Source: Nocardioides psychrotolerans (GTDB lineage Bacteria > Actinomycetota > Actinomycetes > Propionibacteriales > Nocardioidaceae). Taken from it: a stretch of 64,000 nucleotides of DNA. Each line of letters opens with the position of its first letter. The first letter of the stretch is position 1. Location: positions 62,001-126,000 of the forward strand of contig NZ_FOQG01000011.1 of assembly GCF_900113685.1 (NCBI RefSeq), given 5' to 3'. Below are positions 56,859 through 61,116 of this stretch, piece after piece. Below the pieces are notes generated by a model that did no database searches, was not told the origin of the DNA, and saw only the letters and a list, made by a program, of their open reading frames with translations. A program made the position numbers and the translations under genes.

Positions 56859-57394
56859 CTTCTGACGGTGTGGCGGGCTGGGAGCAGGTAGGGGAGGACC
56901 GGCCCGTCTACGCCGGCTACACACGCGTCGTACGTCGCCGCATGCGGCAGGCCGACGGCCGCGAGAGCGACTGGGACCTGGTCGAGAGCCCCGACTCCGT
57001 GGTGGTGCTCGCCCTCACCCCTGCTCGGCAGGTGGTGGCGATCCGCCAGTTCCGTCCCGGGCCCGACCGGGTGATGCCCTCGTTGCCCGGAGGGCTGATC
57101 GACGAGGGCGAGAGTGTCCTCGACGCGGCCGCCCGCGAGCTGCTGGAGGAGACCGGCTACGTCGGCGAGCGGTGGGACGTCGTCACCCGCACCACGCCCT
57201 ACAAGAGCACCGAGAGTCGGTGGGTGACGGTCGCGCACGACTGCCTACGGTCCGCGCCGCAGTCCCTCGACGAGCACGAGGACATCGCGGTGTGCCTCCT
57301 GTCGCTGGCACAGCTTCGCGACGAGCTGCGCTCCGGCGGCTTCGGCACCACCGACCAGGCGTACCTCGCGCTGGATCATCTCGGTCTTCTCTGA
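56855..57394 (+). CDS. NUDIX hydrolase (ADP-ribose pyrophosphatase-like)
   Basis: A 179-residue Nudix protein. The box [22 protein letters not shown] followed by GY fits GX5EX7REUXEEXGU exactly (about 80-102). [21 protein letters not shown] just before it is typical of ADP-ribose/ADP-sugar pyrophosphatases of the NudF type. The GTG start overlaps the prcA stop, so it is translated with the proteasome subunits, an unusual companion. A palindromic repeat pair begins 12 nt past its stop. Confidence 0.9.
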
Positions 57395-57405
57395 CGGGCT
57401 GGAGC

Positions 57406-57468
57406 TGCGGTTTGGTCACCGCCCGCGGCCCCAGGCCCCCAGGACATGCGGTTGGTGACCAAACCGCA
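57406..57468. repeat. REP-like palindromic repeat pair, locus A
   Basis: TGCGGTTTGGTCACC (57406-57420) is exactly complementary to 57454-57468, with a 33-nt loop. The right-hand part (57447-57468) is itself a 22-nt near-palindrome, the exact reverse complement of the unit at 60035-60056. It starts 12 nt after the NUDIX stop codon and would also act as an mRNA 3' hairpin. Confidence 0.88.
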
Positions 57469-57558
57469 CATCGTCAGTGCGTGTGACGGGTCCGACGGAT
57501 ATCCACAGGCCGCCGTGGGTCGGGTTTGCCGGACGCACCGGATGCCCAGGCTGAAGCC

Positions 57559-58569
57559 ATGACCGAGGACGCCGAGGAGCTACCCGAGCCGCCGCACTGG
57601 CGTCTGTTGACCTCTGAGCAGGTGGGCGATGCCCAGCGCGGGGAGGTACGCACGGCCGGGCATCGTCGCGTCAGCTTCGGTCTCTACCGCTCGGCGACCC
57701 AGGGCGACGAATGGTCTGAGCTGGTCAAGGACCTGCAGGCCTTCCGTCTGGTCCTGCCCGAGGGGGCTGCGTTCACCCACGTGACGGGAGCACGACTGCG
57801 GGGTTGGGACCTTCCCCAGCTGCCGCGCCAGGTGCCGGTCTTCGCGTCGGTCCCAGGTGATGTGGCGCGGCCGAGACGCTGTGGCCTCATCGTGTCGAGG
57901 TTGGTCAGCGATGCTCCCGACGAGTTGCGGCACGGCCTGCCCGTCGCGGCGGCTGAGGAGATCCTGCTGCGGGCGAGCCGCGACCTGGGGACCCTCGACG
58001 TCGCGATCATGCTCACGTCAGCACTGCGCGTGGGTGACATCGACCAGCAGCGCCTCGAGAGGCTCCTCGCGTCGCGTCGTCCCGGCGTACGACGCCTCCG
58101 GGCTGCGTGTCACTTGTCCGATCGGAAGTGCGAGTCGCCAGGAGAGGTGTTGCTGAAGATCCTCCACGACGTCTGCGACGTTCCTGCCGACCCGCAGGTG
58201 GAGCTCTTCGACGACCGTGGAACGTCCCTGGGACGAGCGGACCTGCTGCTGCGGGGGACTCGCCACGTCCACGAGTACGACGGCGGGCACCACCGCGACA
58301 AGGACCAGCACCGGACCGACCTGAGACGAGAGCGCGGCCTGTCGCCCCACTACGAGCGGCGTGGGTTCACCCTCGACGACCTGCTCAACCATCCCCTCAC
58401 AGTGATGCACGAGCTGGACCGGCTCCTGGAACGACCTCATCAGCTGCGACGGCTTCACCGGTGGCGATCCCTGGTCCTCAGCTCGTGCTACTCCGAGGAT
58501 TGCCGGGAGCGCCTGCACATGCGCTGGCAGCGGCTCACTGGCCAGGTGGAGTGGCAACCCACGGGGTAG
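57559..58569 (+). CDS. AbiEi-like/DUF559 (Vsr-like) endonuclease-domain protein
   Basis: A 336-residue protein. The N-terminal region (about 40-160; AFTHVTGARLRGWDLP, HGLPVAAAEEILLRAS) matches the AbiEi-like antitoxin/regulator module often fused in actinobacteria to a C-terminal DUF559 nuclease. That nuclease has ESPGEVLLKILHDVC, LGRADLLLRGTRHVHEYDGGHH (Asp, Glu-x-Asp) and a following RTDLRRERGL segment, so the PD-(D/E)XK active site looks intact. ATG 57559 has CAGGCT 6 nt upstream; an in-frame TTG at 57526 is possible. Copies of the same 22-nt palindrome flank it on both sides. It interrupts the otherwise conserved prcA-pafA neighbourhood and is probably an inserted, multicopy-type gene. 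The function is unknown. Confidence 0.72.
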   Translation: MTEDAEELPEPPHWRLLTSEQVGDAQRGEVRTAGHRRVSFGLYRSATQGDEWSELVKDLQAFRLVLPEGAAFTHVTGARLRGWDLPQLPRQVPVFASVPGDVARPRRCGLIVSRLVSDAPDELRHGLPVAAAEEILLRASRDLGTLDVAIMLTSALRVGDIDQQRLERLLASRRPGVRRLRAACHLSDRKCESPGEVLLKILHDVCDVPADPQVELFDDRGTSLGRADLLLRGTRHVHEYDGGHHRDKDQHRTDLRRERGLSPHYERRGFTLDDLLNHPLTVMHELDRLLERPHQLRRLHRWRSLVLSSCYSEDCRERLHMRWQRLTGQVEWQPTG

Positions 58570-58580
58570 GTCCGCATCGT

Positions 58581-58602
58581 TGCGGTTCGGGACCAAACCG
58601 CA
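58581..58602. repeat. REP-like palindromic unit, locus B
   Basis: A single 22-nt unit starting TGCGGTTCGGGACC, 20 of 22 bases identical to the right-hand units of loci A and C, located 12 nt after the stop of the DUF559 gene. It is a near-perfect palindrome by itself. Confidence 0.85.
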
Positions 58603-58659
58603 ACCTTGTCGCACGGGCAATGGGCAGACGGGCTGGATCGTGGGCCGTAGGGTCTGGGT

Positions 58660-60021
58660 GTGGACCGACGGATCTTCGGCATCGAGAACGAGTACGGCGT
58701 GACGTGCACGTTCAAGGGGCAGCGCCGGCTGAGTCCCGACGAGGTGGCCCGCTACCTCTTCCGCAAGGTGGTCAGCTGGGGCCGATCCAGCAACGTCTTC
58801 CTCCGCAACGGCGCGCGGCTCTACCTGGACGTCGGCAGCCACCCGGAGTACGCCACGCCTGAGTGCGACGACATCGCCGAGCTCGTGACGCACGACAAGG
58901 CGGGCGAGAGGGTCCTCGAGGGCCTGCTGCTCGACGCGGAGCAGCGACTCCACGACGAGGGCATCCAGGGCGAGATCTACCTCTTCAAGAACAACACCGA
59001 CTCTGCCGGAAACTCCTACGGCTGTCACGAGAACTACCTGGTGGGACGTGCCGGTGAGTTCAGCCGGCTGGCCGACATCCTGATCCCCTTTCTGGTGACC
59101 CGGCAGATCGTCGTCGGGGCCGGCAAGATCACGCAGACGCCACGCGGCGCGTCGTTCTCGGTCTCGCAGCGCGCCGAGCACATCTGGGAGGGCGTGAGCA
59201 GCGCGACCACGCGCAGCCGCCCGATCATCAACACCCGCGACGAGCCGCACGCGGACGCGGAAAAATACCGCCGGCTCCACGTGATCGTCGGTGACTCCAA
59301 CATGAGCGAGACCACCACGATGCTCAAGGTCGCGAGCTGCGACCTGGTGCTGCGGATGATCGAGGAGGGCGTGGTGATGCGCGACCTCACGATGGAGAAC
59401 CCGATCCGCGCCATCCGCGAGATCTCCCACGACATGACCGGGCGTCGCAAGGTCCGCCTGGCCAACGGGCGCGAGGCGAGCGCCCTGGAGATCCAGGGCG
59501 AATACCTTTCAAAGGCGCGTGACTTCGTGGACCGCCGTCAGATCAGCACGCCGCTCATCGAACGGTCGCTGGACCTGTGGGAGCGAGGTCTCAAGGCCGT
59601 CGAGTCAGACGATCTCGGCCTGGTGGACAGAGAGCTCGACTGGGTCATCAAGTGGAAGCTGATCGAGCGCTACCGTGCCACGCACGGACTGCCGCTGGAG
59701 CACCCGAGGATCGCCCAGCTCGACCTCGCCTACCACGACATCCACCGCGGACGAGGCCTCTACTACCTGCTCGAGAAGCGCGGCGCCGTGGCGCGGGTGA
59801 GCACCGACCTGAAGATCTTCGAGGCCAAGTCGGTCCCGCCGCAGACGACTCGTGCCCGACTGCGTGGTGAGTTCATCCGCAAGGCCCAGGAGCGGCGCCG
59901 CGACTTCACCGTGGACTGGGTTCACCTCAAGCTCAACGACCAGGCCCAACGCACCGTGCTGTGCAAGGACCCGTTCCGGGCCCACGACGAGCGCGTGCAG
60001 CGGCTCATCGACGGCATGTGA
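58660..60021 (+). CDS. pafA: Pup ligase PafA
   Basis: Activates Pup-Glu with ATP and ligates it to substrate lysines. The 453-residue protein is a Dop paralogue: [16 protein letters not shown] (nucleotide/metal Glu residues), [17 protein letters not shown] with catalytic Asp57, [17 protein letters not shown], and the C-terminal Pup/target-binding domain. It lacks the Dop loop. GTG with TAGGGT 6 nt upstream (leaderless). It is separated from pup-prcBA by the DUF559 insertion and followed by repeat locus C. Confidence 0.96.
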
Positions 60022-60034
60022 GCGCGCCACGGGT

Positions 60035-60097
60035 TGCGGTTTGGTCACCAACCGCAGCTCAACGGCAGATGGAGTTGCGGTTGGTGACCAAACCGCC
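60035..60097. repeat. REP-like palindromic repeat pair, locus C
   Basis: A 22-nt unit beginning TGCGGTTTGGTCACC at 60035-60056 is followed after 19 nt by its inverted copy at 60076-60097 (21 of 22 bases complementary). Together they form a large hairpin with 21-bp arms, 14 nt after the pafA stop. The arrangement mirrors locus A. Confidence 0.88.
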
Positions 60098-60180
60098 ACC
60101 CGTTGAGGCCTGTCGGCACTTCTCAGCCACGGCTTGTAAGGTGACGGCGCCGTACTGACCTGCTCCCGAAGGACATCCCT

Positions 60181-61116
60181 GTGCTCTCGCGTCTTCGTCG
60201 CCCTGCGACCCTGGCCGTCTCCGTCCTGCTCCTGACGACGCTCGCTGCGTGTGGCGACGACACAGGGGAGGAAGCATCGGGGCTCGACCGGCTGGATGCC
60301 GTCAGCGTGAGTGGAGACCCGGGCAAGGCGCCGAAGGTGACCTGGAAGGACCAGATGTCGGCGGACGGGATCGAGGTCGAGGTGCTCGTCGAGGGTGACG
60401 GGGACACGGTCGCCGAGGATGACCAGGTCACGGTCAACTACTGGGTCGGCAACGGCTTCACCCAGCGCAAGACCTTCAGCACCTACGACCAGGGCGGTCA
60501 GCCGGAGACCATCACGGTCAACGACGAGCTCCTCGCGGTGTTCAGGGATGCCCTGCTCGACCAGGCGATCGGGTCGCGCGTCGCCGTGACAGCCTCGGCT
60601 CCGGAGGCCTTCGGCGAGTCCGGCAACCCGCAGCTCGGCATCGGCAACCAGGACTCAGTGCTGGTCCTCGTGGACCTGGTCGAGCTCTACGAGGCCCCCG
60701 AGCCCGTCGAGGTGCCCGCGTCGAGGATGCCGAAGATCGTCGAGGAGAAGGGCGTGCCCACGGCCCTGGACTTCACCGGTCTCCCCGAGCCCGAGGCCGA
60801 CGGCGACCTGATGCGCACCGTCCTCGAGGAGGGGAACGGCAAGGTGCTGACGACCGACATGAAGGTCAAGGTCAACTACCTGGGATCGGTCTACGACGCC
60901 GACAAGCCGTTCGACGAGAGCTTCTCCGGGGAGCCCCTCTCCCTGGAGCTCTCCGGCTTCGTCCCCGGCTTCACCTTCGGTCTCGAGGGCGTCAAGGCCG
61001 GCAGTCGCGTGCTGCTCGCCATCCCGCCCGCGCTGGGCTACGGCGAGCAGGAGCAGGCCAACATCCCGGCCAACAGCACGCTCTACTTCGTGGTCGACAT
61101 CATCTCCGCCGCCTGA
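60181..61116 (+). CDS. FKBP-type peptidyl-prolyl isomerase lipoprotein
   Basis: A 311-residue exported folding catalyst. Signal peptide with lipobox LAAC (lipid-modified Cys24) after LAVSVLLLTTLAA; a degenerate FKBP domain about 50-165 (VTVNYWVGNGFTQRKTF) and a canonical one about 195-310 (VKVNYLGSVYDADKPFDESF, GLEGVKAGSRVLLAIPPALGYGEQ). It accelerates prolyl isomerisation outside the membrane. GTG with GAAGGA upstream and a TAAGGT -10 further up. It lies between pafA and pafB, unlike the contiguous order of mycobacteria. Confidence 0.92.
   Translation: MLSRLRRPATLAVSVLLLTTLAACGDDTGEEASGLDRLDAVSVSGDPGKAPKVTWKDQMSADGIEVEVLVEGDGDTVAEDDQVTVNYWVGNGFTQRKTFSTYDQGGQPETITVNDELLAVFRDALLDQAIGSRVAVTASAPEAFGESGNPQLGIGNQDSVLVLVDLVELYEAPEPVEVPASRMPKIVEEKGVPTALDFTGLPEPEADGDLMRTVLEEGNGKVLTTDMKVKVNYLGSVYDADKPFDESFSGEPLSLELSGFVPGFTFGLEGVKAGSRVLLAIPPALGYGEQEQANIPANSTLYFVVDIISAA

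What the first reader, a model, noticed from the sequence alone, without database searches (positions are those of the whole stretch)
57406..60097. Five copies of a 22-nt palindrome bracket a DUF559/AbiEi-type nuclease gene
The same unit (beginning TGCGGTTTGGTCACC) appears as an inverted pair after the NUDIX gene, singly after the nuclease gene and as an inverted pair after pafA, each 12-14 nt past a stop codon and nowhere else noticed in 64 kb. REP/REPIN elements elsewhere depend on a cognate RAYT nuclease; here the only nuclease-like gene in the vicinity is an AbiEi-DUF559 protein inserted in a conserved locus. A nuclease-dispersed, 3'-end-targeting palindrome family would be a new kind of REP system.
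Basis: partly seen in the sequence, partly recalled or inferred. Interest (0 to 1): 0.75.

Follow-up and report, generated by a model that had tools for sequence, protein, structure and literature searches.

The report
Nuclease-linked REP-like palindromes in Nocardioides
A gene for a predicted DNA-cutting enzyme in the soil bacterium Nocardioides is bracketed by short palindromes, and copies of those palindromes sit just past the ends of other genes almost only in species that carry the gene, which suggests a second, unrelated way for bacteria to keep scattered repeat families.

Summary
In detail: two inverted pairs of 22-nt palindromes, centres exactly 41 nt apart, and a single. Across 88 genomes of the genus the palindrome core (two or more exact copies) is in 25 and this AbiEi/DUF559-like protein lineage in 25; 24 have both, 62 neither. 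In eight of 15 genomes mapped, most elements lie within 100 kb of the gene or its old site; in five they are dispersed or too few to tell. Of 80 elements in six genomes none lies in a divergent gap; the median distance to a stop codon is 16 nt. Some distant homologs are bracketed by other repeats; two such families were counted genome-wide and are dispersed. The modelled protein joins an AbiEi-like domain to a Vsr-like nuclease domain. The arrangement parallels REPIN/RAYT systems with an unrelated enzyme. Association is strong; that the nuclease copies or maintains the elements is inferred. The main rival is that they are selected binding sites or terminators. I found no paper linking DUF559 to such repeats (listings).

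The parts
57406..57427 (+). Left 22-nt unit of REPIN-like pair A (degenerate right arm), 11 nt after the NUDIX stop codon
57447..57468 (-). Right 22-nt unit of pair A, inverted, centre-to-centre 41 nt from the left unit
57502..57508 (+). TCCACAG motif, DnaA-box-like (resemblance recalled), upstream of the nuclease gene; TCCACA[G/A] lies upstream of 45 of 50 homologs against 9 of 374 control genes
57559..58569 (+). Gene for the 336-aa protein: AbiEi-like N-terminal domain (model residues 53-188) plus Vsr-like (DUF559-type) nuclease domain (191-293). A longer ORF with a TTG start begins at 57526
58581..58602 (-). Single 22-nt palindrome (centre GTCCCG), 11 nt after the nuclease gene's stop codon; by reading a palindrome at this place is seen in 21 of the 24 other carriers (not in G032, G080, G082)
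60035..60056 (+). Left unit of pair B, 13 nt after the pafA stop codon
60076..60097 (-). Right unit of pair B, inverted, 41 nt centre-to-centre; the stretch 60029-60103 folds as one hairpin (-61.2 kcal/mol, z -10)

Best explanation
The elements are a REPIN-like family: about 63-nt units made of two 22-nt imperfect palindromes in inverted (sometimes direct) order with a 19-nt spacer. They depend on a single-copy, mostly position-conserved gene for an AbiEi-Vsr (DUF559-type) protein, itself bracketed by the same palindromes. Shown: co-occurrence, bracketing, lineage-specific likeness of gene-flank and dispersed units, clustering round the gene in many species, and placement at gene 3' ends. Inferred: the AbiEi-like part recognises the palindrome (as duplex or hairpin), the Vsr-like domain nicks or cuts DNA at or near it, and repair or replication copies the element (or restores decayed copies by conversion) into nearby and sometimes distant sites just past stop codons, where it harms least. 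Loss of the gene is then followed by loss of the family. It works like a RAYT/REPIN system but with a non-HUH nuclease.
For: Co-occurrence 24 both, 62 neither, 1 gene only, 1 element only, of 88 genus genomes (Fisher p 3e-19, not corrected for descent). On the best pafA tree the gene needs 13 changes, 5 of them forced by well-supported branches; 5 independent pairs on those branches go the same way in 4.9 on average. G061 has a stop inside the gene and no exact core. Elements within 100 kb of the gene, own flanks left out: G079 16 of 16, G009 16 of 19, G080 15 of 16, G082 13 of 14, G024 11 of 13, G036 13 of 19, G032 13 of 20, each expected under 1. In G026, whose gene is on another contig than pafA, all 11 dispersed elements carry at least one arm of the TGGCG/CGCCA type seen in its gene flanks, though the search core did not include the arms, and 8 of 11 show the same degenerate second unit by reading. 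Gene-flank units are closer to units of their own set than to others (mean 2.8 against 5.1 differences in 32 sets, permutation p 5e-5). Spacers are alike within a genome (z at least 3.7 in 18 of 20 sets), as copying predicts. Distant homologs have their own flanking repeats: a shared 12-mer or longer on both sides in 11 of 25 against 31 of 356 control genes. G023: inverted pairs at a fixed 38-nt offset on both sides of its gene and at three other places. G075: 84 copies at up to 2 mismatches, control 0. E196, D228, E239, D241 and H245 are invariant in 34 homologs (their catalytic role is inferred). Two elements are cleanly absent at the matching place in a relative.
Against: No cleavage, binding or movement was observed. 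Elements mostly keep their positions between related species (70 of 74 flank-mapped comparisons occupied, both directions counted), so movement is rare and long-term maintenance by selection fits too. In G014, G034, G083, G026 and G051 clustering is weak or absent. G056 has 12 cores without the gene, so elements can outlive it. With phylogeny respected, the sign test on supported branches cannot pass 0.05 (5 pairs, median p 0.0625). 14 of 25 distant homologs share no 12-mer between their flanks, and near 6 of 52 homologs in the named set no inverted repeat was found at all (L153, L161, L170, L171, L181, L183). Outside-flank likeness comes close to spacer likeness in some sets (L144, L156, L166, L168). 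Own units are the closest set in only 10 of 32. Whether a RAYT or other transposase is present in these genomes was not tested. Only 10 of 34 members reach E 0.1 with the DUF559 model, and the window protein has no Pfam match.
Confidence: 0.6

Rival explanations
1. The palindromes are functional binding sites of the AbiEi-Vsr protein, kept by selection and not spread by it: for example roadblock terminators at gene ends, or marks that organise this chromosome region. The protein is a site-specific DNA-binding protein and its nuclease domain serves another purpose.
For: Positions and palindromes are conserved while spacers and flanks diverge. Centre distance of 41 nt whatever the orientation. 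0 of 80 elements in divergent gaps and 37 in convergent ones against 12 expected. Strong hairpins (z -5 to -10 for four pairs, -2.2 for the single). In contigs of 4.2-5.4 Mb the gene lies at 0.47-0.57 of the contig length in eight genomes, which would be the terminus if numbering starts at dnaA; but at 0.26 in G024 and 0.10 in G050 (positions, lengths; ratios; meaning inferred).
Against: Spacers share similarity within genomes, which points to copying. Some distant homologs are bracketed by repeats of unrelated sequence. Some genomes have the family dispersed over many contigs. Tandem arrays with period 41 or 31 occur.
Confidence: 0.27
2. The elements are ordinary transcription terminators or 3'-end mRNA hairpins of this lineage and the nuclease gene is incidental.
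For: 3'-end placement, strong hairpins.
Against: Near all-or-none distribution following one gene, clustering round that gene in many genomes, lineage-matched arms. The T-run terminator scan found no site at the elements in 57300-60200.
Confidence: 0.05
3. A different, unrecognised enzyme (a RAYT/Y1 transposase or an IS) disperses the elements, and the AbiEi-Vsr gene merely lies between two of them and was inherited along.
For: REP families elsewhere use HUH transposases (PMC2817692, PMC3116915, passages seen). The gene is single-copy and mostly position-conserved.
Against: Distant homologs at other loci are bracketed by other repeat families, which an incidental neighbour would not be. In G026, where the gene lies elsewhere, dispersed elements still match its flanks.
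Confidence: 0.08

Closest known systems
REPIN/REP elements with RAYT (TnpA-REP) transposases
   Same: Short imperfect palindromes in inverted doublets with a less conserved spacer; extragenic; the gene flanked by its own repeats; repeat sequence changes with the protein lineage; in Thauera more than a third of REPs lie near the rayt gene (PMC2817692, PMC3116915: passages seen)
   Different: The enzyme is a predicted AbiEi-Vsr nuclease, not a Y1/HUH transposase; no GTAG head in any of 23 unit consensuses; fewer copies than most REP families; very strong clustering near the gene in many species; placement just past stop codons
CGTC-tagged REPs without a dedicated transposase
   Same: Palindromic dispersed repeats not tied to RAYT (PMC3733652: abstract and other passages seen)
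   Different: 22 of 23 unit consensuses do not begin with CGTC; the one that does (L144) has it inside the palindrome arm. The family here has a bracketed partner gene
Homing endonuclease I-Bth0305I and Vsr endonucleases (Vsr-like fold)
   Same: Catalytic-domain fold: 3r3p Z 9.5, rmsd 3.2 over 92 residues; Vsr 1cw0 Z 8.2, rmsd 2.9 over 96 (the tool warns that Z of 7-8 is common for models without a clear match)
   Different: Fused here to an AbiEi-like domain; associated with multicopy palindromes rather than one homing site or T:G mismatch repair (functions of the known enzymes recalled)
AbiEi antitoxins (type IV toxin-antitoxin AbiE)
   Same: N-terminal part resembles AbiEi: 6y8q Z 9.0, rmsd 3.8 over 129; PADLOC AbiEi models match some members, best E 8e-6, but not the window protein
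   Different: Direct neighbours in the window are NUDIX and pafA, not an AbiEii toxin gene; nuclease domain added

Membership tests
REP/REPIN element | Short (20-40 nt) imperfect palindrome, multicopy, extragenic | tested here: met
   22-nt units; of 80 elements in six genomes 3 fall in predicted genes
REP/REPIN element | Inverted doublets with a less conserved spacer that form a hairpin | tested here: met
REP/REPIN element | GTAG (or CGTC) tag at one end | tested here: not met
   No GTAG in any of 23 unit consensuses; one (L144) begins with CGTC within its arm
RAYT/TnpA-REP | Cognate gene flanked by its own repeats | tested here: met
   A shared repeat of 12 nt or more on both sides in 21 of 25 close and 11 of 25 distant homologs against 31 of 356 controls
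RAYT/TnpA-REP | HUH/Y1 transposase | tested here: not met
   Pfam scan of 34 members gives weak DUF559 and AbiEi and no Y1 model; the model's two domains align to Vsr-like and AbiEi chains
RAYT/TnpA-REP | Cleaves and joins its cognate repeat | not testable with these tools
   needs biochemistry
Vsr-like / DUF559 nuclease | Fold and catalytic-type residues | tested here: met
   Fold; invariant E196, D228, E239, D241, H245. The sequence-level Pfam match is weak (10 of 34, best E 0.002), and the assignment of catalytic roles is recalled
AbiE toxin-antitoxin | Adjacent AbiEii nucleotidyltransferase toxin gene | tested here: not met
   In the window the neighbours are NUDIX and Pup ligase by Pfam; neighbours in other genomes were not scanned

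The most novel reading that the evidence does not exclude
A widespread actinobacterial family of AbiEi-Vsr nucleases is a second, independent solution to what RAYTs do: each lineage's protein recognises, copies and maintains its own dispersed palindrome family by a nick- or break-and-repair route rather than by HUH transposition, placing copies just past stop codons and mostly near its own gene. A DnaA-box-like motif before the gene may tie it to replication.
Probability: 0.4. Interest if true: 0.93.

Novelty: new variant of a known kind. Interest (0 to 1): 0.83.

Why it matters
The REP families with a known partner depend on one enzyme class. A second, unrelated enzyme with the same genomic signature would show that scattered palindrome families are a recurrent solution, offer a partner-gene model for repeat families that lack a transposase, and give DUF559/AbiEi-type proteins a testable role. 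Local clustering round the gene gives a natural record of how such elements spread.

Tried and rejected
A 23-nt pattern with wrong spacing found nothing; the correct unit is 22 nt. BLAST alignments of ten locus pairs showed no large gaps, so flank mapping was used instead. One of its four 'empty' rows (L157 at 9816 against L149) is an artefact, because L149 holds the pair there; two of the other three rows are the same L149 element. The first alignment was too diverse for the genome scan and a closer set of 23 was used. A scan of viral contigs found no relative. NCBIfam gave only weak unrelated matches. PDB sequence search gave one weak endonuclease match (E 0.15). The idea of terminus-specific marks of the matS kind (recalled) was considered from the gene's place in long contigs; the dispersed genomes and the distant families weaken it, but it is not excluded.

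Limits of counts: the start used for L124 (G028) was too early, so its flanking repeat, visible, was missed; L179 was left out for short flanks. One search used 34 of the 52 named loci (L137, L138 and L171-L186 not given); three of these were dropped for too few units and G026 was added. In one search the G048 stretch had no sequence after pafA, and it counts among the 63 gene-free genomes. In one search the upstream stretch of controls reaches 60 nt into the ORF while that of homologs ends 10 nt before the matched part. The protein class limit (E at most 1e-74, at least 47% identity) was chosen at a gap in the list (next 7.7e-60, 42%).

Full report
What is there. The window is part of contig C27 of a 4.52 Mb genome; the named close relatives are mostly Nocardioides. 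The five units are confirmed with small corrections. Two inverted pairs have the same offset, and the same offset recurs twice more on the contig. In the eleven other genomes whose regions were read, most units fall in pairs whose centres are 41 nt apart, inverted or direct, with mostly 19-nt spacers. Units are imperfect palindromes with a near-invariant core GTTTGGTC[A/C]C[A/C]AAC and variable arms. Complementarity of arm pairs 2, 3 and 4 exceeds shuffles (0.77 against 0.64, 0.50 against 0.35, 0.65 against 0.49 in 197 distinct units); pair 1 does not clearly (0.44 against 0.41), and pairs 5 to 8, fixed by the search core, say nothing.

Does it follow the gene? The core was counted exactly in 116 relatives, 71 of them in the genus, and in the 17 remaining genus genomes; the protein was sought in the same sets. 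Of 88 genus genomes the gene lineage is in 25 and two or more cores are in 25. Both: 24. Gene only: G061, where the gene has an internal stop. Elements only: G056, with 12 cores still round its pafA. Neither: 62, of which G081 has one core. Among the 45 genomes of other genera two have one core each. Fisher p is 3e-19, but species are related. On the best pafA tree of 88 genomes plus two outgroups the gene needs 13 changes (5 forced by well-supported branches) and the elements 14; the 5 independent pairs on supported branches go the same way in 4.9 of 5 on average, and the sign test cannot reach 0.05 with 5 pairs. An element core lies within 160 nt of the pafA stop in 9 of 25 gene carriers and 0 of 63 others. 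The gene lies within 2 kb upstream of pafA in 24 of 25 carriers, all but G026.

Where do elements lie? Positions were mapped in 15 genomes. Counting elements rather than units, and leaving out the gene's own flanks, most lie within 100 kb of the gene in G079, G009, G080, G082, G036, G032 and G024 (13 to 20 elements each, expected under 1), and within 100 kb of pafA in G056 (9 of 10). Smaller sets G055 (3 of 4) and G008 (4 of 10) lean the same way; G014 (4 of 23), G034 (3 of 17) and G083 (2 of 11) show little, and G026 (1 of 11) and G051 (0 of 3) none. Nunvar and colleagues report a similar closeness of REPs to the rayt gene in Thauera (PMC2817692, passage seen). With genes called by a simple codon model in six genomes (637 kb), 80 elements split into 37 convergent, 40 tandem, 3 within genes and 0 divergent; by base pairs 12.4 convergent and 21.6 divergent were expected; 70 of 77 start within 40 nt of a facing stop codon, median 16.

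Copying or selection? Spacers are more alike within a genome than shuffled ones (z at least 3.7 in 18 of 20 sets; the others 2.0 and 0.9), which suggests descent from common copies; but in a few sets the stretch outside the element is nearly as alike, and the G080 set holds tandem arrays. Between L141 and L143 (90.7% identical over aligned parts) elements sit at the same places, palindromes kept and spacers changed. Over eleven pairs of loci, both directions counted, 70 of 74 comparisons were occupied; two distinct elements are cleanly absent in a relative, one of them at the pafA 3' end, with roughly 85-100 nt missing directly after the stop codon. So elements are gained or lost as units, but slowly.

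Generality. Flanks of several distant homologs (36-44% identity) hold other inverted repeats. A shared repeat of at least 12 nt lies on both sides in 11 of 25 distant homologs, 21 of 25 close ones and 31 of 356 control genes, most of the longest control hits being the window's own element family. Near 6 of 52 named homologs no inverted repeat was found. In G023 a repeat unlike the window's forms inverted pairs with a 38-nt offset on both sides of the gene and at three other places, with no exact copy in 16 other genomes. In G075 another repeat has 84 copies at up to 2 mismatches, control 0; five genomes with related homologs have 6 to 14 (G017, G022, G030, G046, G084), while four with homologs (G001, G013, G021, G065) have only 2 or 3, hardly more than ten genomes without such homologs (0 to 2). 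In G026 the gene is on another contig than pafA, and all 11 dispersed elements carry at least one arm of its gene-flank type. Across 32 sets gene-flank units resemble units of their own set most on average, though own is the closest set in only 10 of 32.

The protein. Sequence models barely see it. The AlphaFold2 model is good (mean pLDDT 90). Residues 191-293 align to Vsr-like nucleases and the homing endonuclease I-Bth0305I, 53-188 to an AbiEi antitoxin, at Z 8 to 9.5; Foldseek alone gave no match below E 0.001. E196, D228, E239, D241 and H245 are invariant in 34 homologs. TCCACA[G/A], like a DnaA box (resemblance recalled), lies in the 250 nt upstream of 45 of 50 homologs (25 of 25 close, 20 of 25 distant) against 9 of 374 control genes; in 9 of them it comes twice, 27-30 nt apart. 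No relative was found in viral contigs.

Comparison and verdict. The architecture matches REPIN/RAYT systems as described in PMC3116915, PMC2817692 and PMC3733652 (passages seen), except for the enzyme and the end tags. It is therefore not filed as a member of the RAYT family, but as something that probably works like one. Full-text searches for DUF559 with repeats, mobile elements or REP, and for AbiEi with inverted repeats, showed no such report; one held papers contain DUF559 at all, judged from titles and the start of abstracts, with passages seen in one, on a Vsr-like DUF559 protein of Caulobacter (PMC12907096). The library is partial.

Noticed in passing
window 57502-57508 and upstream of 45 of 50 homologs: A TCCACAG motif resembling a DnaA box lies between the upstream palindromes and the nuclease gene; in 9 homologs it is doubled 27-30 nt apart.
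   Followed up: partly
L255 (G029), just after the pafA stop codon: A different long inverted-repeat pair (GTTGACCCGTCT type) sits where several gene carriers have the window's element; possibly another repeat family using the same kind of site.
   Followed up: no
L060 7666-7883 and L064 92-270 (G080): Same-orientation arrays of the unit with a period of about 41 nt and nearly identical spacers, so tandem duplication happens too.
   Followed up: no
G000:C25:110409-110464 (in L027): A same-orientation pair of units lies inside an open MFS transporter reading frame.
   Followed up: partly
G061:C1:2079034-2079981 (L105): The gene has an internal stop and the genome has no exact core; degenerate palindromes remain beside the gene.
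   Followed up: partly
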